DNA from: Brucella haematophila
GTDB taxonomy: Bacteria > Pseudomonadota > Alphaproteobacteria > Rhizobiales > Rhizobiaceae
NCBI RefSeq assembly: GCF_005938105.1
Contig: NZ_VCPE01000011.1
Location: 1 to 64,000 of the forward strand
DNA length: 64,000 bases
Direction: 5' to 3'
This document shows positions 43,307-63,145 of this stretch, piece after piece (positions within the stretch are counted from its first letter, which is position 1; every line of letters starts with the position of its first letter). The notes beneath the pieces were generated by a model, which was not told where the DNA came from, searched no databases, and worked only from the letters and a program-made list of their open reading frames with translations. The position numbers and the translations under genes are program-made.

Positions 43307-44323
<1,017 letters not shown>

Positions 44324-46543
44324 TTACAGGGCGCAGGAAACGCAGCCTTGCACCTGCGTCCCTTCAAGCGCCATCTGGCGCAGCCGGATGTAGTAGATCG
44401 TCTTGATGCCTTTCTTCCAGGCATAGATCTGGGCGCGGTTGATGTCGCGGGTGGTGGCCGTGTCACGGAAGAACAAGGTCAAGGACAGGCCCTGATCGAC
44501 ATGCTGGGTAGCAGCCGCATAGGTGTCGATGATCTTTTCCGGCCCGATCTCATAGGCGTCCTGATAATAATCGAGATTATCATTGGTCATGAACGCAGCC
44601 GGATAATAGACGCGACCAATCTTGCCTTCCTTGCGGATTTCGATCTTGGACACAATCGGATGGATGGAAGAAGTGGAATGGTTGATATAGGAGATCGACC
44701 CGGTCGGTGGCACCGCCTGAAGGTTCTGGTTGTAGAGGCCACCCTCCATCACCGCCTTTTTCAAGTCGCGCCAGTCGTCCTGCGTGGGGATCGCGATGCC
44801 CGCCTTTTCGAAAATCTCGCGGACCTTGTCGGTCTCTGGCTCCCAAAGCTGATCGGTATATTTGTCAAAATATTCACCCGATGCATATTTGGACTTCTCA
44901 AAACCGCTAAATGATTTGCCCGCTTCGACGGCAATGCGGTTCGAAGCACGCAGAGCGTGATAAGTCACGGTGTAGAAATAGATATTCGTGAAATCCACGC
45001 CTTCTTCCGAACCGTAGAAAATCCGCTCGCGAGCAAGATAGCCATGCAGGTTCATCTGGCCGAGGCCGATGGCGTGGCTCTCATCATTGCCGCGCGCAAC
45101 AGACGGCACCGAGCCAATATGGCTCATATCGGAAACTGCCGTCAGCGCCCGAATGGAGGTTTCAATGGTCTTTCCAAAATTCGCCGAATCCATGGCGGCT
45201 GCGATGTTGAGCGAGCCGAGATTGCACGAAATATCCTTGCCGAGATGGGCATAGGAAAGGTCTTCATCAAAAATGCTGGCTTCGCTGACCTGCAGGATTT
45301 CCGAGCACAGATTGCTCATGGTGATGCGCCCGTCAATCGGGTTGGCGCGGTTCACCGTATCCTCGAACATGATGTAGGGATAGCCGGACTCAAACTGAAT
45401 TTCCGCCAGAACCTGGAAGAACTCACGCGCATTGATCTTCCGCTTGCGGATGCGCGCATCATCGACCATTTCGCGGTATTTTTCCGTGACGGAAATCTCG
45501 GTCAGCGGCTGACCATAGACCCGCTCCACGTCATAAGGCGAGAAGAGATACATATCCTCGTTGTTGCGGGCGAGTTCAAAGGTGATATCCGGGATCACCA
45601 CACCCAGCGACAAGGTCTTGATGCGGATTTTCTCGTCCGCATTCTCGCGCTTGGTGTCGAGGAAACGCATGATATCGGGATGATGTGCATGCAGATAAAC
45701 CGCACCTGCTCCCTGTCGCGCGCCAAGCTGATTGGCGTAGGAGAATGAATCCTCCAGCAGCTTCATCACGGGAATGATGCCCGATGACTGGTTCTGGATC
45801 TGCTTGATCGGCGCGCCGGATTCGCGAATATTCGTCAGGCTCAAGGCCACGCCGCCACCGCGCTTGGAAAGCTGCAATGCGGAATTGATGGAGCGTCCGA
45901 TGGACTCCATGTTGTCTTCCACCCGCAGCAGGAAGCAGGACACAAGCTCGCCACGCTGTTTCTTGCCTGCATTAAGGAATGTTGGCGTTGCGGGCTGATA
46001 GCGACCGGAAATAATCTCGTCGACAAGGTCGCGGGCCAGCTGCTCACTGCCGCGCGCCAATGCCAGCGCCACCATGCAGACACGGTCTTCATAGCGCTCC
46101 AGATAGCGCTTTCCGTCAAAGGTCTTCAGCGTGTAGCTGGTGTAATATTTGAAAGCGCCGAGAAATGTCGGGAAACGGAATTTCTTGGCATAGGCCTCAT
46201 CGAAAAGGTCGCGCACGAAATTGAAGGAGTACTGATCCAGTACCGCCTGTTCGTAATAGTTCTCCGTCACCAGATAATCGAGTTTCTCCCGCAGATTATG
46301 GAAGAAGACCGTGTTCTGGTTGACGTGCTGAAGGAAATATTGCTGCGCAGCCTGCTTGTCACGATCAAGCTGGATCTTGCCTTCGTCATCATAGAGGTTG
46401 AGCATCGCGTTCAGCGCATGATAGTCCAGCCCATCCGTAGATTTGACGGGCTTGGGGCTGTTCGATGCCGCTGCTTGCGGCGCGTCCTGCGCGACCAGCT
46501 CTGCCTCGCGCTCGCGGATCAGGGTTGTGTCTGCCGTGTCCAA
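44324..46543 (-). CDS. nrdE: Class Ib ribonucleoside-diphosphate reductase, alpha subunit
   Basis: A 739-residue NrdE catalytic subunit. It has the N-terminal [19 protein letters not shown], active-site Cys in GELVSCFLL and SNLCSEIL, the radical-transfer Tyr pair in the C-terminal domain ([11 protein letters not shown]) and the redox-active C-terminal CVSCAL that is reduced by NrdH. Start is TTG (46543), 25 bp inside the end of nrdI, so the two are translationally coupled. Confidence 0.94.
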
Positions 46544-46953
46544 AATCGTTCCATCCCGTTCCTGACATTGCCAATGTCTTCATCTGTTCCCAAAAGCTCA
46601 AAGCGATAGAGATAGGGAACCTGACATTTGGCAGAGATTATTTTACCGGCTATGCCGAAAGCTTCGCCGAAATTGCTATTACCCGCGGCAATCACGCCGC
46701 GGATCAGCGAGCGATTCCCCGTATTGTTGAGAAAGCGGATGACCGGCTTGGGCACCGCCCCTTTGGTTCCGCCGCCGCCATAACTTGGCGTCATGAGCAC
46801 GAATGGCTCGTCTATCTGCAACGGGTTCGATTCTTCCTCATCCTTTTGCAGGATGGGAATGCGCCTCGCGCGCATTCCAAGCCGCTCTACGAAACGATGC
46901 GTGTTCTCGGAGCGACTGGAAAAATAGACTAGGAGACCCATTGCCGAGCTCAT
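46519..46953 (-). CDS. nrdI: NrdI flavodoxin-like activator
   Basis: A 144-residue NrdI. FMN-binding segments [29 protein letters not shown] and [18 protein letters not shown] are intact. NrdI supplies oxidant for assembly of the manganese cofactor in NrdF. Lies between nrdH and nrdE. Confidence 0.94.
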
Positions 46954-46966
46954 GACAAAGCCACGG

Positions 46967-47188
46967 TCACGAAAGACCGTTGATCATGTCTGGACGAAAA
47001 CCGGCCCAGTGAGTTTCACCAGCCACAACGACTGGCACCTGACGATAGCCCAGCCCTGTGACCAGATCGTAAGCGGCCATATCAGCAGAAATGTCGATGA
47101 CCTGATAATCGATCCCCTGACGATCGAGGGCACGGGTGGTTGCGGTGCACTGGACGCAAGCGGGTTTGCTATAGACGGTGACGTTCAT
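46967..47188 (-). CDS. nrdH: NrdH glutaredoxin-like redoxin
   Basis: A 73-residue NrdH. The redox motif is CVQC in [19 protein letters not shown], and YRQVPVVV and [10 protein letters not shown] are the conserved substrate-binding stretches. It is reduced by thioredoxin reductase and reduces NrdE. I chose the ATG at 47188 (GAGGAAGAA upstream). First gene of the operon. Confidence 0.94.
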
Positions 47189-47523
47189 TTCTTCCTCACT
47201 GGATTGGGCACAGATTGCCTGGAACGCAGCAACCCCATCGGGACAGATGCGCATGAGAGATCGTTCGCGCATGGCACATGCGCGTGATGGCGGACAAAAT
47301 CGGGGAACAGTCAGTGATGCTTGAGCACCACCGGACCGCGCAAAATCACCTCTGGAAAGGTGGACCTGAACTGAAGGAACAATACAAACTGGACAATGTG
47401 TCAGACATGGACTTCACCCCGAAGCTTGTGAGCGGGCATTCGGGGTAGCAATCGGCAAGAAGCACATCTCGCCTCAATGATTGCGCACCAACCGGACACC
47501 CCGCCCGTGGACGTTCATTGCTC

Positions 47524-47690
47524 AAGGCAGGTCTCCTGGCTCACGGGTCAGCGCTCTTGTCGGTCTTCCCAGCTTACGCCAGTGACGTGATCAACAATAA
47601 CTCACCGCTTACAGTTGCGGGGGCAGCTTCGGCTTCGTCTCAGCCCTCATGGCAGCGACTCACCGAATTCCCTCTTAGCTTTCGACTCAT
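47524..47690 (-). ncRNA. Cobalamin riboswitch upstream of nrdHIEF
   Basis: On the minus strand the leader has, in order, AAGAGGGAA and GGTGAG blocks, the core CCCCCGCAACTGTAAGCGG (47623-47605), GCCACTGG-like and GGGAAG elements, and the B12 box AGCCAGGAGACCTGCC (47541-47526). These are the hallmarks of AdoCbl riboswitches. It lies ~340 bases before nrdH with no other credible gene between. It should turn off the B12-independent reductase when cobalamin is plentiful, allowing a class II NrdJ encoded elsewhere to take over (inferred). Confidence 0.9.
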
Positions 47691-47709
47691 CGAATCGAAA
47701 GAACCTAGA

Positions 47710-47725
47710 ACACTATATATAGTAG
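47710..47725. promoter_or_regulatory. NrdR-type box
   Basis: ACACTATATATAGTAG contains the perfect palindrome ACTATATATAGT and fits the NrdR box consensus (ACACwATATwTwGTGT type). It lies just upstream of the riboswitch, where the promoter of nrdHIEF is expected. A degenerate second box may be at 47745-47757 (CAAC...GTTG), 33 bases away centre to centre, as NrdR requires pairs. Confidence 0.6.
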
Positions 47726-47819
47726 CCGAAGTTAAAAGACCGTCAACGGATAGTTGGCGAAAAGCGAAAGATCAGCGATCCATTTTGTAATGGCTGTGAA
47801 GAACGTGGATAACCGGACT

Positions 47820-53733: not shown

Positions 53734-54130
53734 GCACACCCTCTTCAAACCGACTGTTTTGCGCAAGCGACAGGTTGAAACCCGTCGCGCGACGGCCTGT
53801 GGATAATTGTCACCGGGACAATCGTGGGAGACAGACAAAATCACCACGTACGAACGCTGAAAGCTAACGTCTTCTTTTCAAAAAGATATTCCCGGTGCCA
53901 CATAGTGCAGCACCTTTCGGCGGGCCAACCGGCGCGCACCGGTGACTTGACGCGCCAATTTCAATATGCGTTAACGCGTCCTCTAATCTGTCATACAGCT
54001 TTACAGATTACCCTCAAAATGGGGTGAGACTCGCCCCATTGAACGACCAACGGCGCGCCCTAAGTGGCGATTCATGCTGTGAATGGTCCTATCGAAAACG
54101 CGCCCGCAAAGCGCTTACCTGGGAGGAGCA
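53734..54130. other. Intergenic region upstream of ansP
   Basis: A 397 bp gap with no gene seen. It holds the inverted repeat at 53806-53822 and must hold the promoter of the permease gene. Confidence 0.4.
53806..53822. promoter_or_regulatory. Inverted repeat upstream of ansP, possible GntR operator
   Basis: ATTGTC-ACCGG-GACAAT, 6 bp perfect arms with a 5-base spacer. The size and odd spacing fit FCD-type GntR operators, and the gene directly before it encodes one. Binding is inferred. Confidence 0.5.
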
Positions 54131-55600
54131 ATGACGATCGAAACCGTGAAAGCCAGTCCGGCGGAACGTGAAATCTTCATCGAAGAGGATAGCGGTTACC
54201 ACAAGGCCCTGAAGCCTCGGCAAATCCAGATGATCGCGATTGGGGGAGCGATCGGAACGGGGCTTTTCCTTGGTGCTGGTGGGCGACTTGCGCAAGCGGG
54301 GCCTGCCCTCGTTTTCGTCTATGCGCTTTGCGGCTTCTTCGCCTTTCTGGTTTTGCGCGCGCTGGGTGAGCTGATCATGCATCGGCCAAGCTCGGGATCA
54401 TTCGTCTCCTATGCCCGTGAGTTTTACGGCGAGAAGCTGGCCTTCGCCGCTGGCTGGATGTACTGGCTGAACTGGGCGATGACTTCGGTGGCCGATGTGA
54501 CCGCCGTCGCGCTCTACATGAATTTCTTCAAGCATTATGTTCCCTGGCTGCAAGGCATCGACCAGTGGATGTTTGCGCTCACAGCGCTCCTCATCGTGCT
54601 CGCGATGAACCTGATGTCGGTGAAAGTCTTCGGCGAGATGGAATTCTGGTTCAGTCTCGTCAAGGTGCTGTCGCTCGTCACCTTTCTGGTGGTCGGAATT
54701 TATTTCGTCGTCTCCGGCACACCGATTGACGGTCACGCCGCCGGTTTCAGCATCATCACCGATAGCGGGGGCTTCTTCCCGAACGGCATATTACCGGCCT
54801 TCGTGATCATACAGGGCGTCGTCTTCGCCTATGCCTCCATCGAACTGATCGGCACCACGGCTGGCGAAACCGAAGACCCGCGCAAGGTAATGCCCGGCGC
54901 AATCCGCACCGTCGTCTTCCGCCTGCTGGTCTTCTATGTCGGCTCGGTGCTGCTGCTGTCGCTGCTTCTGCCCTACACGGCCTATTCCGCTGGCGAAAGC
55001 CCGTTCGTCACCTTCTTCAGCAAGATCGGCGTCGAGGGTGCGGATATCATCATGAACCTTGTCGTGCTGACCGCAGTTCTCTCGTCGCTCAATGCGGGCC
55101 TCTATTCGACAGGCCGTATTCTGCATTCGATGGCTATTTCCGGTTCCGCGCCTTCGGCTCTGGCCAAGATGAACAAGAACGGCGTCCCCTTTGTCGGCAT
55201 CGCGGTCACCGCCGTCGTGACGGTGATCGGCGTTGTCCTCAATGCCCTCGTGCCTTCAGATGCCTTCGAAATTGCGCTCAATCTCTCCGCGCTCGGCATT
55301 ATCACTGCATGGGGCGTCATCGTTCTCTGCCAGCTGAAGCTATGGTATCTGGCGCGGCGCGGCGAAATCGAACGGCCTGATTTCCGGATGTTCGGCGCAC
55401 CCTATACAGGCATCCTCACACTGGCTTTCCTTCTCGGCGTTCTGGTTCTGATGGCGTTCGATTATCCGGTCGGTACCATGACCATCGCTTCGCTGCTGAT
55501 CATCATCCCCGTGCTCATCATCGGATGGTATCTGATGCGCGACCGTATCCATCGACTTGCCGCAGAACGTGCTATAGACGCAAGCACTCTGAGCAAGTGA
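54131..55600 (+). CDS. ansP: L-asparagine permease
   Basis: A 489-residue amino acid permease of the APC superfamily (AAT family) with 12 helices. Signature: [38 protein letters not shown] at residues ~24-60, [29 protein letters not shown] chose the ATG at 54131 (GGGAGGAG upstream). AnsP is preferred over other AAT-family members because asparaginase follows after 7 bases. Confidence 0.83.
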
Positions 55601-55607
55601 GGAAAAC

Positions 55608-56555
55608 GTGAATACAGCGCCGAACAAGCCCGTGGTGGCGGTCATCGCCACCGGGGGCACCATTGCAAGCAAACGCGGTGAAGATGGCGCAAGCACGCCG
55701 ACATTATCCGGCGAAGACCTGCTCGCGCTTATACCGAATATCGACGCTGATCTGCGCCCCATAGACTTGATGGCGAAGGATTCGTCGCTGCTCACGCTGG
55801 CCGACATGCAGCATATCAGCGATACCGTCGGCGAAGCGCTGAACAATGCCGCCATCCATGGCGTGGTCGTCCTGCATGGCACCGACGCCATGGAAGAGAC
55901 CGCGCTTCTGGTGCAGCTCCAGCACCGGCTTGCAAAGCCGGTCATCTTCACCGGCGCACAATTTACAGCCGATCATCCGCATGCCGATGGCCCTGCCAAT
56001 CTTGCCGATGCGGTCGGGCTTGCCATTGATTCCGACAACGCTGCACGCGGCGTACTCATCGCTTTTGGCGGTCGGGTTCTTCCGGCATGGGGTGCCTATA
56101 AAGTCAGCAGCGACAGCGCCGATGCATTTCATTCGGCACGAGCGCTGGATGTGCTGCCGGATGTGCAGCTTCCGTCAAAAATTGGCGATGGCCGTGTCGA
56201 TACGGTTGCCATTTATCCCGGCTGCGATGCCATCCATGTTGCGGCAAGTGTTGCAGCCGGCGCGCGCGGCATTGTTCTCGCCGGGCTTGGCTCCGGCAAT
56301 GCGACGCCGGAGATTGTCGAAGCCGTACGGGTTTGCACCGAACAGGGCATCGCGGTTGTCGTATCAAGCCGCGTGCCGGAAGGTCTGTTGACGCCGGGCT
56401 ATGGCGGCGGTGGCGGTGGGCACGATCTTGCTGCGGCAGGTGCGATCCACGCCCGCACACTTCGTCCCGGTCAGGCGCGCATTCTGCTGGCGGCGCTTAT
56501 CGCCAGCGGCAGTCCGAAAGATGCAATCATCCGCGCCTTCGGCGACAGCCAATAA
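55608..56555 (+). CDS. ansA: L-asparaginase (type I/II, bacterial)
   Basis: A 315-residue asparaginase with both catalytic threonine motifs: ATGGTIA (residues 14-20) and VVLHGTDAMEETA (87-98). The GLGSGN region and C-terminal PGYGGGGGGHDL are also conserved in the family. It has no signal peptide, so it is cytoplasmic. Start is GTG with GTGAGG upstream. It turns imported asparagine into aspartate and ammonia. Confidence 0.9.
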   Translation: MNTAPNKPVVAVIATGGTIASKRGEDGASTPTLSGEDLLALIPNIDADLRPIDLMAKDSSLLTLADMQHISDTVGEALNNAAIHGVVVLHGTDAMEETALLVQLQHRLAKPVIFTGAQFTADHPHADGPANLADAVGLAIDSDNAARGVLIAFGGRVLPAWGAYKVSSDSADAFHSARALDVLPDVQLPSKIGDGRVDTVAIYPGCDAIHVAASVAAGARGIVLAGLGSGNATPEIVEAVRVCTEQGIAVVVSSRVPEGLLTPGYGGGGGGHDLAAAGAIHARTLRPGQARILLAALIASGSPKDAIIRAFGDSQ

Positions 56556-56712: not shown

Positions 56713-59700
56713 TCACTCGCCCGGCACAAGATGCGGTGCTTCGATCTTCGCGCCCGAATGCTTGAGCGGACGCTCGCCGCTCAGCTTGCGGATCAGCACA
56801 TAGAACACCGGCGTCATGAAGATGCCGAAGGCCGTCACGCCGATCATGCCCGCGAAGACCGCGATACCCATTGCGGAGCGCATTTCCGCACCGGCACCGG
56901 TGGATGTAACCAGCGGCACCACGCCCATGATGAAGGCCATGGAGGTCATCAGGATCGGGCGCAGACGCAACCGGCTGGCTTCGACGGCGGCCTGCACCAC
57001 GCTTCGACCGGAAAGCTCCAGCTCGCGGGCAAATTCCACGATCAGGATCGCGTTCTTCGCCGATAGTCCCACAAGGACGATCAAGCCAATCTGGGTGAAG
57101 ACGTTGTTGTCACCCCCCGTCAGCCAGACGCCGGTGAGTGCAGCCATGATACCCATCGGAACAATCATGATGATCGACAGGGGCAGAGCAAGGCTTTCAT
57201 ACTGCGCGGCCAGCACCAGATAGACGAGCAGCAGCGCCAGCGGGAAGACGAGGAAGCCTGAATTGCCAGCCAGAATCTGCTGGTAGGTCAGATCGGTCCA
57301 CTCGAAAGCGATGCCCGGAGGCAAGGTTTCCTGCGCAATCCGCTCGACAGCCGCCTGCGCCTGACCGGACGAGAAGCCGGGGGCCGGATTGCCGTTGATA
57401 TCGGCAGACAGGAAGCCGTTATACCGGATGGCGCGTTCCGCACCCACGGTCTGCTCCACCTTCATCAGCGCCGACAGCGGGATCATCTCGCCCGATTGCG
57501 AACGAACCTTCAGCTTGCCGATATCTTCGGCATGGCTGCGGTAATTCGCATCGGCCTGAATGCGCACGCTGTAGGTGCGTCCAAATGCATTGAAGTCGTT
57601 GACGTAGAGCGAACCCAGATAGATCTGCAACGTCTCGAACACATCGGTCACCGCCACACCCAGCTGCCGTGCCTTCACACGATCCAGATCGGCATAAAGC
57701 TGCGGCACATTGATCTGGTAACTCGAATAGAGACCGGCCAGTTCGGGTGTCTGATAGGCCTTGGCGAGAAACGCCTTGGTCGCATCGTCAAGCGCACGGA
57801 AGCCAAGCCCGTTGCGATCTTCGAGCTGGAGCTTGAAGCCGCCCGTTGTACCCAGACCCTGCACAGGCGGTGGCGGGAACATGGCAATGAACGCATCCTG
57901 AATGGAGCCGAACTTCTGATTCAGCTGCATGGTGATAGCGCCTGCCGACAGGTCGGGCGTCTTGCGTTCCTCGAACGGCTTCAACGTGACGAAGACAATG
58001 CCTGAATTCGACGAGTTGGTGAAACCGTTGATCGAAAGGCCCGGGAAGGCAATGGCATTGGCAACGCCCGGCTGGTCGAGCGCAATATCCGTCATGCGGC
58101 GGATGACATCTTCCGAGCGGTCAAGTGTGGCCGCATCCGGCAATTGCGCAAAGCCAATCAGATATTGCTTGTCCTGTGCTGGAACGAAGCCGCCTGGCAC
58201 CGCACGGAACAGAACAAAGGTAACGCCGAGCAGCACGACATAGAGGCCCATCACCAGCGACTTGCGCGAGAGTATTGCGCCCACGCCGCGACCATAGGCA
58301 TTCGAGCTTGCACCGAAAAAGCGGTTGAAGCCACGGAAGAACCAGCCGAACGCCTTGTCCATGATGCGGGTCAAACGATCCTTCGGCGCATCATGACCAC
58401 GCAGCAGCAGGGCTGCGAGAGCTGGCGACAGGGTCAGCGAGTTGAAGGCCGAGATCACTGTCGAGATGGCGATGGTCAGCGCGAACTGGCGATAGAACTG
58501 GCCGGTAAGGCCGGTAATAAATGCCAGCGGCACAAAGACCGCAACCAGCACCAGCGCAATCGCGATGATCGGGCCGGACACTTCCTGCATGGCGCGATAG
58601 GTCGCTTCCACCGGCGACAGTCCCTGTTCGATGTTACGCTCGACATTTTCCACCACCACGATGGCGTCGTCGACGACGATACCGATGGCCAGCACCAGAC
58701 CGAACAGGCTCAGCGCATTGATGGAGAAGCCGAACATATACATGACCGCGAACGTACCCACGATGGAAACGGGGACCGCGACCAGCGGAATGATCGATGC
58801 GCGCCATGTCTGCAAGAACAGAATGACCACAATCACCACCAGAACGATGGCTTCAAGCAGGGTGTGAATAACCGACTCGATAGAGGCTTTCACAAATGCT
58901 GTCGTGTCATAGACGATGTCGAAATCCACGCCTTCCGGCATGGTCTTCTTCAGATCGGCCATGGCCGCGTGCACATTTTCCGAAATCTGCAAAGCGTTGG
59001 AACCTGGCGCCTGAAACACGCCCATGCCAACGGCCTGCTTGTTGTCGAGCAGAGAGCGCAGTGAGTAATCCGCAGCCCCCATCTCGACGCGGGCGACATC
59101 GCCAAGGCGCGTGATTTCGCCCTCGCTGCCCGACTTCACGACGATATTGGCGAAGTCTTCCGGTGTCTGAAGACGGCCTTGCGCATTGACGGAAAGCTGA
59201 AGATCAAGACCGGAAACATTCGGCGAAGCACCAATCACGCCAGCGGCGGCCTGAACATTCTGCTGCCGGATTGCGTTTGCGATATCGCCCGCGGAAAGTC
59301 CGCGCTCGGCTGCCTTTTGCGGGTCGATCCAGACGCGCATGGAATAATCGCCGCCGCCGAATATCTGCACCTGACCGACGCCCGGAATACGCGCGATGCG
59401 GTCCTTGACGTTCAAAACGGCATAGTTGCGCAGATAGTTCACGTCATATCGGCCATCGGGCGAGATGAGGTGAACGACCAGCGTGAGATCGGGCGAGCTT
59501 TTGGCGGTGGTGACGCCGAGCGTGCGCACCTCTTCCGGCAGGCGTGGCTCGGCCTGCGAGATACGGTTCTGCACAAGCTGCTGCGCCTGATCAGGATCGG
59601 TGCCGAGTGCGAAAGTGACAGTCAATGTCATGACGCCATCGGCTGTCGCCTGGCTCTGCATATAGAGCATGCCTTCAACACCGTTGATCTGTTCTTCAAG

Positions 59701-59898
59701 CGGTGTAGCGACGGTCTCGGAAATCACGGCAGGGTTGGCGCCCGGATATTGCGCGCGCACCACGATCTGTGGTGGCACGACTTCCGGATATTCCGAAATC
59801 GGCAGACCTGTCATGCCGATCAGACCGGCCACGAAGATCAGAACCGAAAGAACGCCAGCGAAGACCGGGCGGTCTACGAAGAAGCGTGAGAAGTTCAT
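56713..59898 (-). CDS. RND multidrug efflux permease (HAE1 family)
   Basis: A 1061-residue inner membrane pump of the AcrB/MexF type, with 12 helices and two large periplasmic loops. The N-terminus FSRFFVDRPVFAGVLSVLIFVAGLIGMTGLPISEYPEVVPP is typical, and the proton-relay Asp pair is in LAIGIVVDDAIVVVENVERN. Length and sequence are nearest to MexF and the Brucella BepG group. Second gene after its adaptor (122 bp gap). No outer membrane channel is encoded here, so it would use a shared TolC-type protein. Confidence 0.9.
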   Translation of the reverse strand: MNFSRFFVDRPVFAGVLSVLIFVAGLIGMTGLPISEYPEVVPPQIVVRAQYPGANPAVISETVATPLEEQINGVEGMLYMQSQATADGVMTLTVTFALGTDPDQAQQLVQNRISQAEPRLPEEVRTLGVTTAKSSPDLTLVVHLISPDGRYDVNYLRNYAVLNVKDRIARIPGVGQVQIFGGGDYSMRVWIDPQKAAERGLSAGDIANAIRQQNVQAAAGVIGASPNVSGLDLQLSVNAQGRLQTPEDFANIVVKSGSEGEITRLGDVARVEMGAADYSLRSLLDNKQAVGMGVFQAPGSNALQISENVHAAMADLKKTMPEGVDFDIVYDTTAFVKASIESVIHTLLEAIVLVVIVVILFLQTWRASIIPLVAVPVSIVGTFAVMYMFGFSINALSLFGLVLAIGIVVDDAIVVVENVERNIEQGLSPVEATYRAMQEVSGPIIAIALVLVAVFVPLAFITGLTGQFYRQFALTIAISTVISAFNSLTLSPALAALLLRGHDAPKDRLTRIMDKAFGWFFRGFNRFFGASSNAYGRGVGAILSRKSLVMGLYVVLLGVTFVLFRAVPGGFVPAQDKQYLIGFAQLPDAATLDRSEDVIRRMTDIALDQPGVANAIAFPGLSINGFTNSSNSGIVFVTLKPFEERKTPDLSAGAITMQLNQKFGSIQDAFIAMFPPPPVQGLGTTGGFKLQLEDRNGLGFRALDDATKAFLAKAYQTPELAGLYSSYQINVPQLYADLDRVKARQLGVAVTDVFETLQIYLGSLYVNDFNAFGRTYSVRIQADANYRSHAEDIGKLKVRSQSGEMIPLSALMKVEQTVGAERAIRYNGFLSADINGNPAPGFSSGQAQAAVERIAQETLPPGIAFEWTDLTYQQILAGNSGFLVFPLALLLVYLVLAAQYESLALPLSIIMIVPMGIMAALTGVWLTGGDNNVFTQIGLIVLVGLSAKNAILIVEFARELELSGRSVVQAAVEASRLRLRPILMTSMAFIMGVVPLVTSTGAGAEMRSAMGIAVFAGMIGVTAFGIFMTPVFYVLIRKLSGERPLKHSGAKIEAPHLVPGE

Positions 59899-60020: not shown

Positions 60021-61211
60021 TTAATTCTTGGCAAGTGTTTCAGTGACGGGCTGCGGTGCGACGACCACGCCCGGACGAATGCGTTGCAGGCCGTTGACGA
60101 CGATGTTCTCGCCAGCCTTCAGACCGCTTTCGACAATGCGCAAGCCATCATAATTGCGACCGAGCACCACCTGCCGGTATTCCACCTTGTTGTCCGCACC
60201 CACGACGAAGACAAATTTCTTGTCCTGATCGGAGCCAATGGCACGGTCGCTCACCACCAGTTTTTCGTCCGGTTCCGGCTCGCCGAAACGAATGCGCACG
60301 AACTGACCGGGAATGAGCTTGCCATCCGGATTGTCGATGGCGGCGCGCACCCGGATGGTGCCCGTAGTGGCATCCACTTCATTGTTGATCAGCTGGATAT
60401 GTCCGGAAATTGGTGTGCCATCGTCGGCGGCTGTACCAATCTGAACGGGGATACGTTCAATAGCGCTACCGCCCGGCGATGCGGCAAGCTTGGCAAGGGC
60501 CTTGGTGACAACCTCTTCATTGGCGCTGAAGCTTGCATAGATCGGGTCGACCGACACAAGCGTGGTGAGCACCGGCGAAGCGGAGCTGGCGGCAACCAGA
60601 TTGCCAGCGGTGACTTCCAGACGTCCAACGCGACCGGAGATCGGCGCGCGCACTTCGGTATATTGAAGGTCGAGTTCAGCGGAGCGAAGTGCCGCCTTGG
60701 CAGAACGCAGGCTTGCCTGCGCCTCGTCAAAGGCGCTCGACCGCTGATCCAGCCCGCTCTGGGCGAGCGTGCGGGTGGTTACAAGCTGGCGACCGCGATC
60801 CAGCTCCGTCTTGGCCAGCGCCACGCGCGCTTCCTCGGCGGAAACCTGGGCCTTGGCTTTTTCAACCGCTGCCGCATAGGGTTCAGGATCGATAGTCACA
60901 AGCAGATCGCCCTGCTTGACCAGCGCCCCTTCACGGAAATGCGCTTTCAGGATCGCGCCTCCGACACGCGGGCGAATTTCCACACGCTCGATTGCCTCAA
61001 GGCGACCCGAAAATTCTTCCCAGGTCGAAATGCGGCGCGACTCCGCTTTGGCGACTGAAACCGGCACGGCAGGCGGCGGTGCTGACATATCCGTCGCTGC
61101 GTCTGCCTTCAGATGGGGAGCGCCAAAGAGAATGGCGCCACCGCCAGCTGCAGACAATAGGATACTCAGGCCGGCGCCCCACAGGGCCCGGCGTCCGATG
61201 ATCGATGTCAT
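60021..61211 (-). CDS. RND efflux periplasmic adaptor
   Basis: A 396-residue membrane fusion protein. The N-terminal hydrophobic stretch (ALWGAGLSILLSAAGGGAILF) acts as signal or anchor. Then lipoyl halves (SGRLEAIERVEIRPRVGGAILKAHFREGALVKQGDLLVTIDP and YTEVRAPISGRVGRLEVTAGNLV), a coiled-coil hairpin between them, and beta-barrel/MP domains (VRIRFGEPEPDEKLVVSDRAI). Pairs with the downstream permease. Confidence 0.9.
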   Translation of the reverse strand: MTSIIGRRALWGAGLSILLSAAGGGAILFGAPHLKADAATDMSAPPPAVPVSVAKAESRRISTWEEFSGRLEAIERVEIRPRVGGAILKAHFREGALVKQGDLLVTIDPEPYAAAVEKAKAQVSAEEARVALAKTELDRGRQLVTTRTLAQSGLDQRSSAFDEAQASLRSAKAALRSAELDLQYTEVRAPISGRVGRLEVTAGNLVAASSASPVLTTLVSVDPIYASFSANEEVVTKALAKLAASPGGSAIERIPVQIGTAADDGTPISGHIQLINNEVDATTGTIRVRAAIDNPDGKLIPGQFVRIRFGEPEPDEKLVVSDRAIGSDQDKKFVFVVGADNKVEYRQVVLGRNYDGLRIVESGLKAGENIVVNGLQRIRPGVVVAPQPVTETLAKN

Positions 61212-61288: not shown

Positions 61289-62104
61289 TTATGCTGGTAT
61301 TGCTTTTGCACCAGCCCGCCGGAAGAAATCCGAAAACAGGCCAGTAAGGACTTCTTTTTGTGGCGGCCACTCGCGGTCGGCCACGGTGCTTTCCGGTATC
61401 CAGCCAGCCTGACCCGGCAGGACATGAGACTGAACCTTGACGCCTGCCTGACGCAGCCGCTCGGCATAGGCCTGGGTTTCGTCACGCATCGGGCATTCAG
61501 CACTGGTGACGAGCAGTGTCGGCACCAGACCGGCAAGACGCGTACACAGCGCAGGCGCGGCATAGGGATGGGTAAACCCACCGCACTGACCCAGATAATG
61601 CTGCCAGCCATCCGACATTGTCTGCACCGCACTTTCCGGGCAGTATTTGCGGAAAGATGCCGTCGCAAGGCAAGGATCGAGCATGGGCGAAAGCAATATC
61701 TGACCTTTGAGATCCGTCAGATTCTGATCTCGCGCCATAAGCGCCAAACCGGCTGCAATATTGCCGCCCGCCTCTTCACCGGCAACGAACAGCATCGACT
61801 TCTTGTGTGCAAATTCCGGGCAACGCGCACGCATCGAAGTCAGAATGGCATAGGCCACCTCAAGCGCCGCCGGGAACGGGTTGAGACAGGCCGACGAATA
61901 TTCCGGCGAGACGACCACCGCTCCCGCATCGGCAAGAGCTTCGGCGACACCCTCGCAGGCATCTGGACAATCAGCCGAGAAAGCCCCACCATGGAGATGC
62001 AGCACCACAGGTGGCGGTGAAAGCAATTTGGCGCCGCGATAAATGCGTGCCGTGCAGGCGCAATTGCCAGCCTGCATTGTTTCAACCGTAAACTTCTCGC
62101 ACAT
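61289..62104 (-). CDS. Alpha/beta-hydrolase-fold protein, apparently without a catalytic triad
   Basis: A 271-residue protein of the hormone-sensitive-lipase-like group: oxyanion-hole motif LHLHGGAF (HGG at 38-40), PEYSSACLNPFPAALEV, and a nucleophile elbow that reads GEEAGGN (109-115) where the family has GDSAGGN, so Glu replaces Ser. The acid-residue motif (DPLRDE in the family) is CPMRDE, and the final GHxF-type His motif reads PGQAGWI. All three catalytic residues seem missing. It lies 77 bp before the RND adaptor gene and is likely co-transcribed. A ligand-binding or regulatory role is possible. Confidence 0.75.
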   Translation of the reverse strand: MCEKFTVETMQAGNCACTARIYRGAKLLSPPPVVLHLHGGAFSADCPDACEGVAEALADAGAVVVSPEYSSACLNPFPAALEVAYAILTSMRARCPEFAHKKSMLFVAGEEAGGNIAAGLALMARDQNLTDLKGQILLSPMLDPCLATASFRKYCPESAVQTMSDGWQHYLGQCGGFTHPYAAPALCTRLAGLVPTLLVTSAECPMRDETQAYAERLRQAGVKVQSHVLPGQAGWIPESTVADREWPPQKEVLTGLFSDFFRRAGAKAIPA

Positions 62105-62230
62105 CTTTCTTAGCTTTCATGTCTAGCGGCAAACCGCCATGGTCAGATATTAGCATTGTCTATTATCTGGAATAGTCCCCCTGGATTGGTTACACTATCC
62201 AAAATCTCGAACAATGACGGTTATTGATCA

Positions 62231-63145
62231 ATGGACCAACTCTCGGCCATGCGCGCCTTTCTCCGGGTTGTCGAAACCGGAAACTTCACGCGCGCCTCCG
62301 CGTCACTCAGCATGCCCAAGGCAACCATCAGCAATCTCATTCAGGGATTGGAAGCCCATCTGGGCGCAAAACTCCTCAATCGTACCACCCGTCGTGTTCT
62401 CGTAACACCGGACGGCGCACTTTACTATGAGCGTGCGGCCCGCCTGTTGGCCGATTTGCAGGAACTCGACGGCAGCCTCTCCAGCGCACAGACCCTGCCC
62501 AAAGGTCGGCTGCGCGTGGAAATGGCGAGCGCCGTCGCCAATCTGATCGTCATTCCCGCATTGATCGAGTTTCACCAGCGCTATCCCGATATCCAGATCG
62601 ACCTCGGCGTATCGGACCGCCCGGTCGATTATGTGGCAGAGAATGTGGATTGCGCCATTCGCATCGGCGAGTTGACCGACCAGTCGCTGATCGCACGGCG
62701 CATCGGCGACATGCATTTCATCGCCTGTGCTTCCGCCGAATATCTTGATCGCTGTTCCACGCCGCAGCACCCGTCGGACCTCGCCAGCAACACCTATGCG
62801 GTCGGCTATTTCCGCCCCTCGACCGGGCAGCAAATGCCGTTTCACTTCAGACGCGGTACAGAAGAAGTCGAGATCAACGGGCGCTATGTTGTGGCTGCCA
62901 ATGAATCGACCACCTATCTGGCGGCAGTCCGCGCGGGTCTTGGCGTCGCACAAGCACCCTTGTTCATGGTTCAGGAGGATCTGGAAAAAGGCACGTTGCG
63001 GCCAGTCCTCGAAGACTGGCAGATCGAACCGATGCCGATTTATCTGGTCTATCCGCCCAACCGACATCTCAGCAATCGTCTGCGCGTTTTTGCAGATTGG
63101 GTGGTCAAAGTCATCGCCAAATCGCAAATGGTGGAGCGCCGCTGA
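62231..63145 (+). CDS. LysR-family regulator divergent from the efflux operon
   Basis: A 304-residue LysR protein ([56 protein letters not shown], then the effector domain [34 protein letters not shown]). The 126 bp divergent gap to the hydrolase-like gene indicates control of the hydrolase-adaptor-RND operon, as with MexT and mexEF-oprN; this is inferred from position. Confidence 0.85.

What the first reader, a model, noticed from the sequence alone, without database searches (positions are those of the whole stretch)
61289..62104. Hydrolase-fold protein without Ser, Asp and His in an RND efflux operon
The GDSAG elbow has become GEEAG (Glu for the nucleophile), and the acid and His motifs are changed as well, while HGG and the fold-defining segments are kept. 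This points to a pseudoenzyme that may bind the pump substrate or act as a sensor. I know of no described case of such a protein in an efflux operon.
Basis: partly seen in the sequence, partly recalled or inferred. Interest (0 to 1): 0.7.

Follow-up and report, generated by a model that had tools for sequence, protein, structure and literature searches.

The report
Serine-less esterase-like protein in pump operon
A protein folded like an ester-cutting enzyme, but with its cutting residue replaced by an acidic one, is kept beside a drug-efflux pump and its regulator in many bacteria; its known cousin LlpE, so far called a putative lipase, has a similar replacement, so the family probably binds or senses something rather than cutting esters.

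Summary
ORF 61289-62104 (-) is an HSL-type alpha/beta hydrolase (Abhydrolase_3) with GEEAG for GDSAG, Cys at the acid position and Gly at the His position. It is the first gene of a LysR / hydrolase / MFP / RND module. No orthologue read carries GDSAG: Glu is in 22 of 22 intact genus copies and 24 of 24 orthologues outside the genus. In a survey started from the RND gene, 19 of 56 operons read have the hydrolase: 14 Glu, 5 Asp, 0 Ser. Glu and Asp forms make one clade apart from the Ser esterases sampled. Within the genus dN/dS is about 0.1, so this is a maintained protein.

LlpE of the Burkholderia ceo and bpeEF-oprC operons sits at the same place, and B. cenocepacia LlpE has GHDAG (Asp). LlpE is in print as a putative lipase/carboxylesterase without effect on efflux; the papers I could search do not remark on a missing serine (the primary paper was not available). 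Best reading: a non-esterase ligand-binding partner of the LysR switch. Main rival: carboxylate-based chemistry, most plausible in the Asp form, which keeps His and acid.

The parts
61289..62104 (-). HSL-fold (Abhydrolase_3) protein, 271 aa, LlpE-like, Glu-type
61766..61780 (-). nucleophile elbow GEEAG (residues 109-113); E111 (61772-61774) replaces the catalytic Ser
   Evidence: Glu in 22 of 22 intact genus orthologues
61985..61993 (-). HGG oxyanion-hole motif (residues 38-40), kept
61493..61495 (-). C204 in place of the acid Asp (ECPMRDE)
61403..61405 (-). G234 in place of the catalytic His (PGQAGWI)
   Evidence: low-confidence loop in the model
61538..61570 (-). H179 ... R189: both in 40 of 40 Glu and 20 of 20 Asp rows; His in 4 of 17 and Arg in 0 of 17 Ser rows: family signature
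60021..61211 (-). MFP, periplasmic adaptor, MexE-like
56713..59898 (-). RND permease, MexF/OqxB-like
62231..63145 (+). divergent LysR-type regulator
62105..62230 (.). LysR-hydrolase intergenic region with a block conserved in much of the genus (ATAGT-N17-ACTAT and flanks in the window); operator/promoter role inferred

Best explanation
It is the Glu-type branch of the LlpE family: an HSL-fold protein, probably cytoplasmic, made together with a MexEF/CeoAB-type RND pump under a divergent LysR activator, which no longer works as a serine esterase. Most likely mechanism: the pocket binds an aromatic substrate or inducer of the pump without cleaving it, and so buffers, stores or presents it to the LysR regulator, tuning when the pump is made. 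Shown here: loss of Ser, His and acid; conserved Glu; conserved gene order; common clade with LlpE; purifying selection; linkage to LysR. Inferred: co-transcription, cytoplasmic location, ligand binding, feedback on LysR.
For: E111 aligns with the catalytic Ser; no GxSxG in the protein. Glu in 24 of 24 orthologues outside the genus and 22 of 22 inside. LysR / AbH / MFP / RND order in 31 of 34 regions read; the other 3 were GDSAG controls without the module. RND-first survey: AbH beside 19 of the 56 RND genes whose upstream side I read (56 of the 135 listed, all of the top 48 among them), Glu 14, Asp 5, Ser 0. A LysR gene is next to the AbH in 19 of 19 (18 divergent); without AbH, a LysR gene lies within 3 kb upstream of the adaptor in 6 of 37 (Fisher p 4e-10, which treats related genomes as independent). 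Glu and Asp forms are one clade against the 17 Ser rows, 98/92. dN/dS 0.065-0.125. No strongly hydrophobic N-terminus in 9 members by a simple hydropathy measure (highest 12-residue mean 1.76). Fold neighbours include EstDL136, a chloramphenicol esterase, TMq 0.79-0.80; chloramphenicol is a listed substrate of BpeEF-OprC and CeoAB-OpcM and a reported inducer of the latter. PMC5587915 states that its data support the notion of an additional regulatory factor in substrate-mediated induction of BpeEF-OprC.
Against: No ligand, binding or regulatory effect was shown by any search. LlpE deletion is reported to change neither function nor antibiotic specificity of BpeEF-OprC (unpublished data); effects on induction were not mentioned in the passages read. 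Linkage to LysR partly follows from the gene lying between LysR and the pump; L206 has the AbH and adaptor but no LysR gene within 1.5 kb, and in L124 and L168 it is further off. Induction is not uniform: PMC1557404 saw no salicylate induction of the ceo pump gene in its conditions. PCR found llpE missing in two B. cenocepacia types (PMC5461758). A residue that is always Glu or Asp suggests a chemical role more than a mere void. LlpE has been called periplasmic, which would separate it from LysR.
Confidence: 0.5

Rival explanations
1. It is still an enzyme, with a carboxylate doing the chemistry: an Asp (and perhaps Glu) nucleophile or acid/base in the elbow, as in haloalkane dehalogenases and epoxide hydrolases (recalled), acting on a pump substrate.
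For: The position is Glu in 40 and Asp in 20 of the 60 family rows, never neutral. Asp-type rows keep His 20 of 20 and acid Asp 20 of 20, i.e. a complete Asp-His-Asp set. HGG is kept.
Against: In the Glu type His is kept in only 2 of 40 rows, and 7 of 40, the window's genus among them, have Cys for the acid, so no triad partner is left there. A Glu nucleophile in this fold is not known to me.
Confidence: 0.27
2. It is a structural or assembly partner (scaffold or chaperone) of the pump or adaptor rather than a ligand binder.
For: Fixed position directly upstream of the adaptor gene.
Against: 37 of the 56 MexF-like operons read lack it, and LlpE deletion is reported not to impair the pump. It tracks LysR rather than the pump as such.
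Confidence: 0.12
3. It is a decaying relic of an esterase.
For: Poorly complete assemblies G001, G006 and G013 hold broken or partial copies, and 10 of 35 genus genomes gave no orthologue.
Against: dN/dS about 0.1 in 21 comparisons; the same residue is kept across the order and in other classes of the phylum.
Confidence: 0.02

Closest known systems
LlpE of Burkholderia cenocepacia (llpE-ceoAB-opcM) and B. pseudomallei (llpE-bpeEF-oprC)
   Same: HSL-fold gene between a divergent LysR gene and adaptor plus RND genes; same clade as the window protein; catalytic Ser replaced by a carboxylate residue in B. cenocepacia NCTC13227 (L141: GHDAG). That operon also has an outer-membrane channel gene. The B. 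pseudomallei protein itself was not fetched.
   Different: LlpE has Asp and keeps His and acid Asp; the window protein has Glu, Gly and Cys. 33% identity. In the window no channel-sized ORF follows the RND gene on its strand.
Bacterial HSL (family IV) esterases, e.g. EstDL136 chloramphenicol esterase, TrLipB, LipP1
   Same: Fold (Foldseek probability 1.00, TMq 0.70-0.80 in the 50 rows listed), HGG, elbow glycines.
   Different: They carry the Ser-His-Asp triad (recalled for the family; Ser seen in 3 of 4 alignments); the window protein has none of the three and scores far below the NCBIfam cut-offs (148 against 350 bits for LipP1).
GID1 gibberellin receptors
   Same: HSL-fold proteins that bind a ligand without being esterases (recalled); sequence relatives at E 4.7e-14.
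   Different: GID1 has an N-terminal lid and, as recalled, keeps Ser and loses His; the window protein has only 37 residues before HGG.
MexEF-OprN with MexT of Pseudomonas (named; rest recalled)
   Same: LysR-controlled, MexE/MexF-type adaptor and permease.
   Different: No HSL-fold gene there (recalled).
Insect carboxylesterase EoblCXE19 (PMC5741679, passage)
   Same: Table lists GHDAG at the elbow, so Asp for Ser occurs elsewhere in the superfamily.
   Different: A 69 kDa insect carboxylesterase, another family and context; no comment on function in the passage seen.

Membership tests
Bacterial HSL (family IV) serine esterase | Abhydrolase_3 fold and HGG motif | tested here: met
Bacterial HSL (family IV) serine esterase | Ser nucleophile in GxSxG | tested here: not met
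   E111
Bacterial HSL (family IV) serine esterase | catalytic His and Asp | tested here: not met
   G234 and C204 by alignment
Bacterial HSL (family IV) serine esterase | esterase activity | not testable with these tools
   needs an assay
LlpE family | same clade as named Burkholderia LlpE, apart from Ser esterases | tested here: met
   Glu+Asp rows against Ser rows 98/92; only 17 Ser rows sampled
LlpE family | first gene of adaptor-RND operon with divergent LysR gene | tested here: met
LlpE family | carboxylate in place of Ser (proposed here as a family feature) | tested here: met
LlpE family | co-transcription with the pump genes | not testable with these tools
   gap to MFP 77 bp, 74-208 bp in 22 genus loci; promoter and terminator scan at chance level, so uninformative
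GID1-type receptor | N-terminal lid over the pocket | tested here: not met
   37 residues before HGG; open frame 275 aa
GID1-type receptor | ligand-dependent partner binding | not testable with these tools
   needs binding assays

The most novel reading that the evidence does not exclude
The whole LlpE family, named in print as putative lipases, is a serine-less HSL lineage that split into two kinds: an Asp-type with an Asp-His-Asp set that would be a dehalogenase- or epoxide-hydrolase-like enzyme inside the HSL family, and a Glu-type (window) that became a non-catalytic receptor for pump inducers working with LysR, a bacterial counterpart of GID1.
Probability: 0.25. Interest if true: 0.75.

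Novelty: new variant of a known kind. Interest (0 to 1): 0.52.

Why it matters
[quoted passage not shown] The residue pattern seen here says the esterase idea is probably wrong for the family and gives a direct test (ligand binding or carboxylate chemistry). It also shows Glu-type genes in Sinorhizobium meliloti and Cupriavidus metallidurans, so the question can be studied in harmless laboratory species. If the protein senses inducers, it would be a missing layer in how LysR-controlled efflux is switched on.

Tried and rejected
Relic gene: rejected by dN/dS. Ser nucleophile elsewhere: no GxSxG in the window protein; two other Glu-type rows of 40 (L025, L035) have a GxSxG away from the elbow. 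GDSAG relatives at this locus: none among the orthologues read. Missing N-terminal cap as a family trait: my count is not usable for Ser types because starts were set to the nearest ATG; I claim it for the window only. A LysR box shared across the family: the exact pattern was found in 14 of 66 upstream regions (shuffled mean 0.59), 13 of them among the 22 genus loci (one, L022, at another place) and S. meliloti L131; not in the other 43. Terminator and promoter scan was at chance level. L023 and L024 (broken copies in poor assemblies) were dropped before all counts; L054 (broken) was dropped from alignments; L103, L104, L105, L110 and L111 (near-duplicates) were dropped from the tree. The pattern itself required Glu or Asp and kept the best 80 of 441 confirmed, so its loci are no evidence for absence of Ser. 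In one search at most two candidates per genome were scored.

Literature searches behind 'not remarked in print': llpE; 23 papers, 20 listed, passages of five read; 177 papers, 20 listed; 1; motif words; 2 papers, one an insect carboxylesterase table with GHDAG; 12; 0. Nair et al. 2004, the primary llpE paper, is not held and was not read, so it may discuss the motif.

Full report
What is there. The ORF at 61289-62104 on the minus strand encodes 271 aa with a clear Abhydrolase_3 domain (Pfam E 7.1e-47); the best NCBIfam profiles are LipP1 and chloramphenicol hydrolase, both far below their cut-offs. Of the four alignments to solved structures printed, three have the esterase Ser under E111 of GEEAG and one is an Ala variant. 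The acid position is Cys204 and the His position Gly234; HGG (38-40) is kept. No GxSxG exists in the protein. The next genes on the same strand are a MexE-like adaptor and a MexF/OqxB-like RND permease, and a LysR gene diverges.

Structure. An AlphaFold2 model from the window protein plus 49 Asp-type relatives reached mean pLDDT 76.1 and pTM 0.81, with strand 104-110 and helix 112-126 around E111. Segments 41-45, 71-76, 171-178 and 233-245 are below 50, so details of the pocket mouth and the former His loop are not reliable. Foldseek against solved structures lists HSL-type esterases and lipases (50 of 1674 matches shown), among them the chloramphenicol esterase EstDL136 with TMq 0.79-0.80. 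By profile the top solved match is the lipase 7wol, which has a Ser elbow (60 of 100 matches shown); none of those listed is called LlpE.

Conservation in the genus. Of 35 genomes of the genus (G000-G034), 22 hold an intact orthologue, 3 of low completeness (G001, G006, G013: 85, 69, 72%) hold broken or partial copies, and 10 gave none. The Glu is kept in 22 of 22 intact copies (codon GAG 21, GAA 1), and dN/dS against the window is 0.065-0.125 in 21 comparisons. One orthologue has GQEAG; the Glu at the nucleophile position stays.

Conservation beyond. In 397 genomes of the order, 24 further orthologues (42-52% identity, 175 bits or more) stand clear of the next matches (116 bits and below). 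All 24 have Glu at the nucleophile position: GEEAG, GEESG, GDEAG, GVEAG, GVESG or GAESG. The acid Asp is kept in 23 of 24 (Cys in L037); the His column holds His in 2 (L025, L052), Gly in 19, another residue in 3. LysR / AbH / MFP / RND is present in 31 of 34 regions read; the 3 others were GDSAG controls and have none of the partners. In 398 genomes of the phylum I read 16 regions: 12 have the module (9 Glu, 3 Asp; in L124 the LysR gene is about 4.8 kb off) and the 4 without it are Ser esterases.

A survey that does not start from the hydrolase. One search covered 349 genomes with the RND protein, scoring at most two candidates per genome, and listed 135 matches. I read the upstream side of 56 of them: all of the top 48 and 8 further ones (analysed in 15, 25, 41). 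The search for the hydrolase used a profile that included Ser-type sequences. It is present beside 19: Glu 14, Asp 5, Ser 0. It was not found in 37; in L212 and L235 the contig ends 2406 and 899 bp upstream, so absence there is weak. A LysR gene is next to the hydrolase in 19 of 19 (18 divergent; L226 same strand). Without the hydrolase, a LysR gene lies within 2 kb upstream of the adaptor in 5 of 37 (4 divergent), within 3 kb in 6. Fisher p is 4e-10 for 19 of 19 against 6 of 37; related genomes are not independent.

Link to LlpE. [quoted passage not shown] cenocepacia ceo operon, as a difference from all other RND pumps then described. [quoted passage not shown] PMC5587915 (passages) says the same from unpublished data, and that its results support the notion of an additional regulatory factor in substrate-mediated induction. 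PMC5461758 (passages) found llpE by PCR in some B. cenocepacia types and not in two others. In the named scan (its pattern demanded Glu or Asp) B. cenocepacia NCTC13227 (L141) has LysR / AbH / MFP / RND and an outer-membrane channel gene, and its AbH has GHDAG with His and acid Asp kept. Of the 82 loci L130-L211, 77 show LysR, MFP and RND by the script's distances; L146, L200 and L209 are cut by contig ends, L168 has its LysR gene about 2.5 kb off, and L206 has no LysR gene within 1.5 kb and is cut before RND. Named Glu-type members are Sinorhizobium meliloti (L131) and Cupriavidus metallidurans CH34 (L130). Further plasmid matches in Shinella, Rhizobium and Comamonas were not checked for the residue.

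Descent. A tree of 77 rows built without the elbow columns puts the 40 Glu and 20 Asp rows together against 17 Ser rows (98/92), with the Asp rows one clade (100/99) and the Glu rows needing 2 changes. This fits a single loss of the serine in this sample, after which the position stayed acidic. Some branches are long (L123, L037 among the Glu rows) and the Ser sample is small. H179 and R189 are invariant in the 60 family rows; among the 17 Ser rows His is in 4 and Arg in none.

How it may work. The Glu type has lost two or three triad residues in most rows, so serine-esterase chemistry is very unlikely. Because it is maintained, tied to the LysR gene, reported as not needed for pump function in the LlpE case, and folded like esterases that bind aromatic drugs, I favour a ligand-binding role that tunes LysR-controlled expression. 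The ceo operon is reported to be induced by salicylate and chloramphenicol, though PMC1557404 itself saw no salicylate induction in its conditions. A gene labelled llpE was among the most root-induced bacterial genes in a synthetic community (log2FC 15.2, PMC10719396, passages), which points to plant compounds; whether that gene is of the Glu or Asp type was not checked. Against this reading: no ligand is known, LlpE has been called periplasmic, and a position that is always acidic suggests chemistry, which is the main rival and is strongest for the Asp type.

Verdict. Real, conserved and more general than the finding said; not unprecedented as a gene (LlpE), but the missing serine across the family appears unremarked in the papers I could search, the primary llpE paper not among them. 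New variant of a known kind.

Noticed in passing
window 62105-62230: The LysR-hydrolase intergenic region holds a block conserved in much of the genus (ATAGTGTAACCAAT...GGACTATTCCAG...ACAATG), also found in part upstream of the S. meliloti orthologue; possibly the LysR operator.
   Followed up: partly
L114-L118 and L123, C-terminal part of the AbH (alignment): Several Glu-type proteins outside the genus have Cys-x-Cys (L115, L116, L118, L123) or Cys-x-x-Cys (L114, L117) near the C-terminus; the window protein lacks it. Possible disulfide or metal site.
   Followed up: no
G000 contig C26:5438-7981: A second, partial RND match 80% identical to the window's RND (open frame 881 aa, query residues 200-1047); not inspected.
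   Followed up: no
L212-L220: Nine genomes of the window's order have an RND gene 73-78% identical to the window's, with an adaptor but no hydrolase or LysR gene found upstream (L212 is cut 2.4 kb upstream), so the same pump type seems to exist under other control.
   Followed up: partly
window about 43310-47750: Stretch similar to nrdH-nrdI-nrdE-nrdF (class Ib ribonucleotide reductase) of rhizobial plasmids.
   Followed up: no
window 54083-56555: An amino-acid permease-like ORF followed by an asparaginase-like ORF, convergent with the RND gene (named by eye from the ORF list).
   Followed up: no
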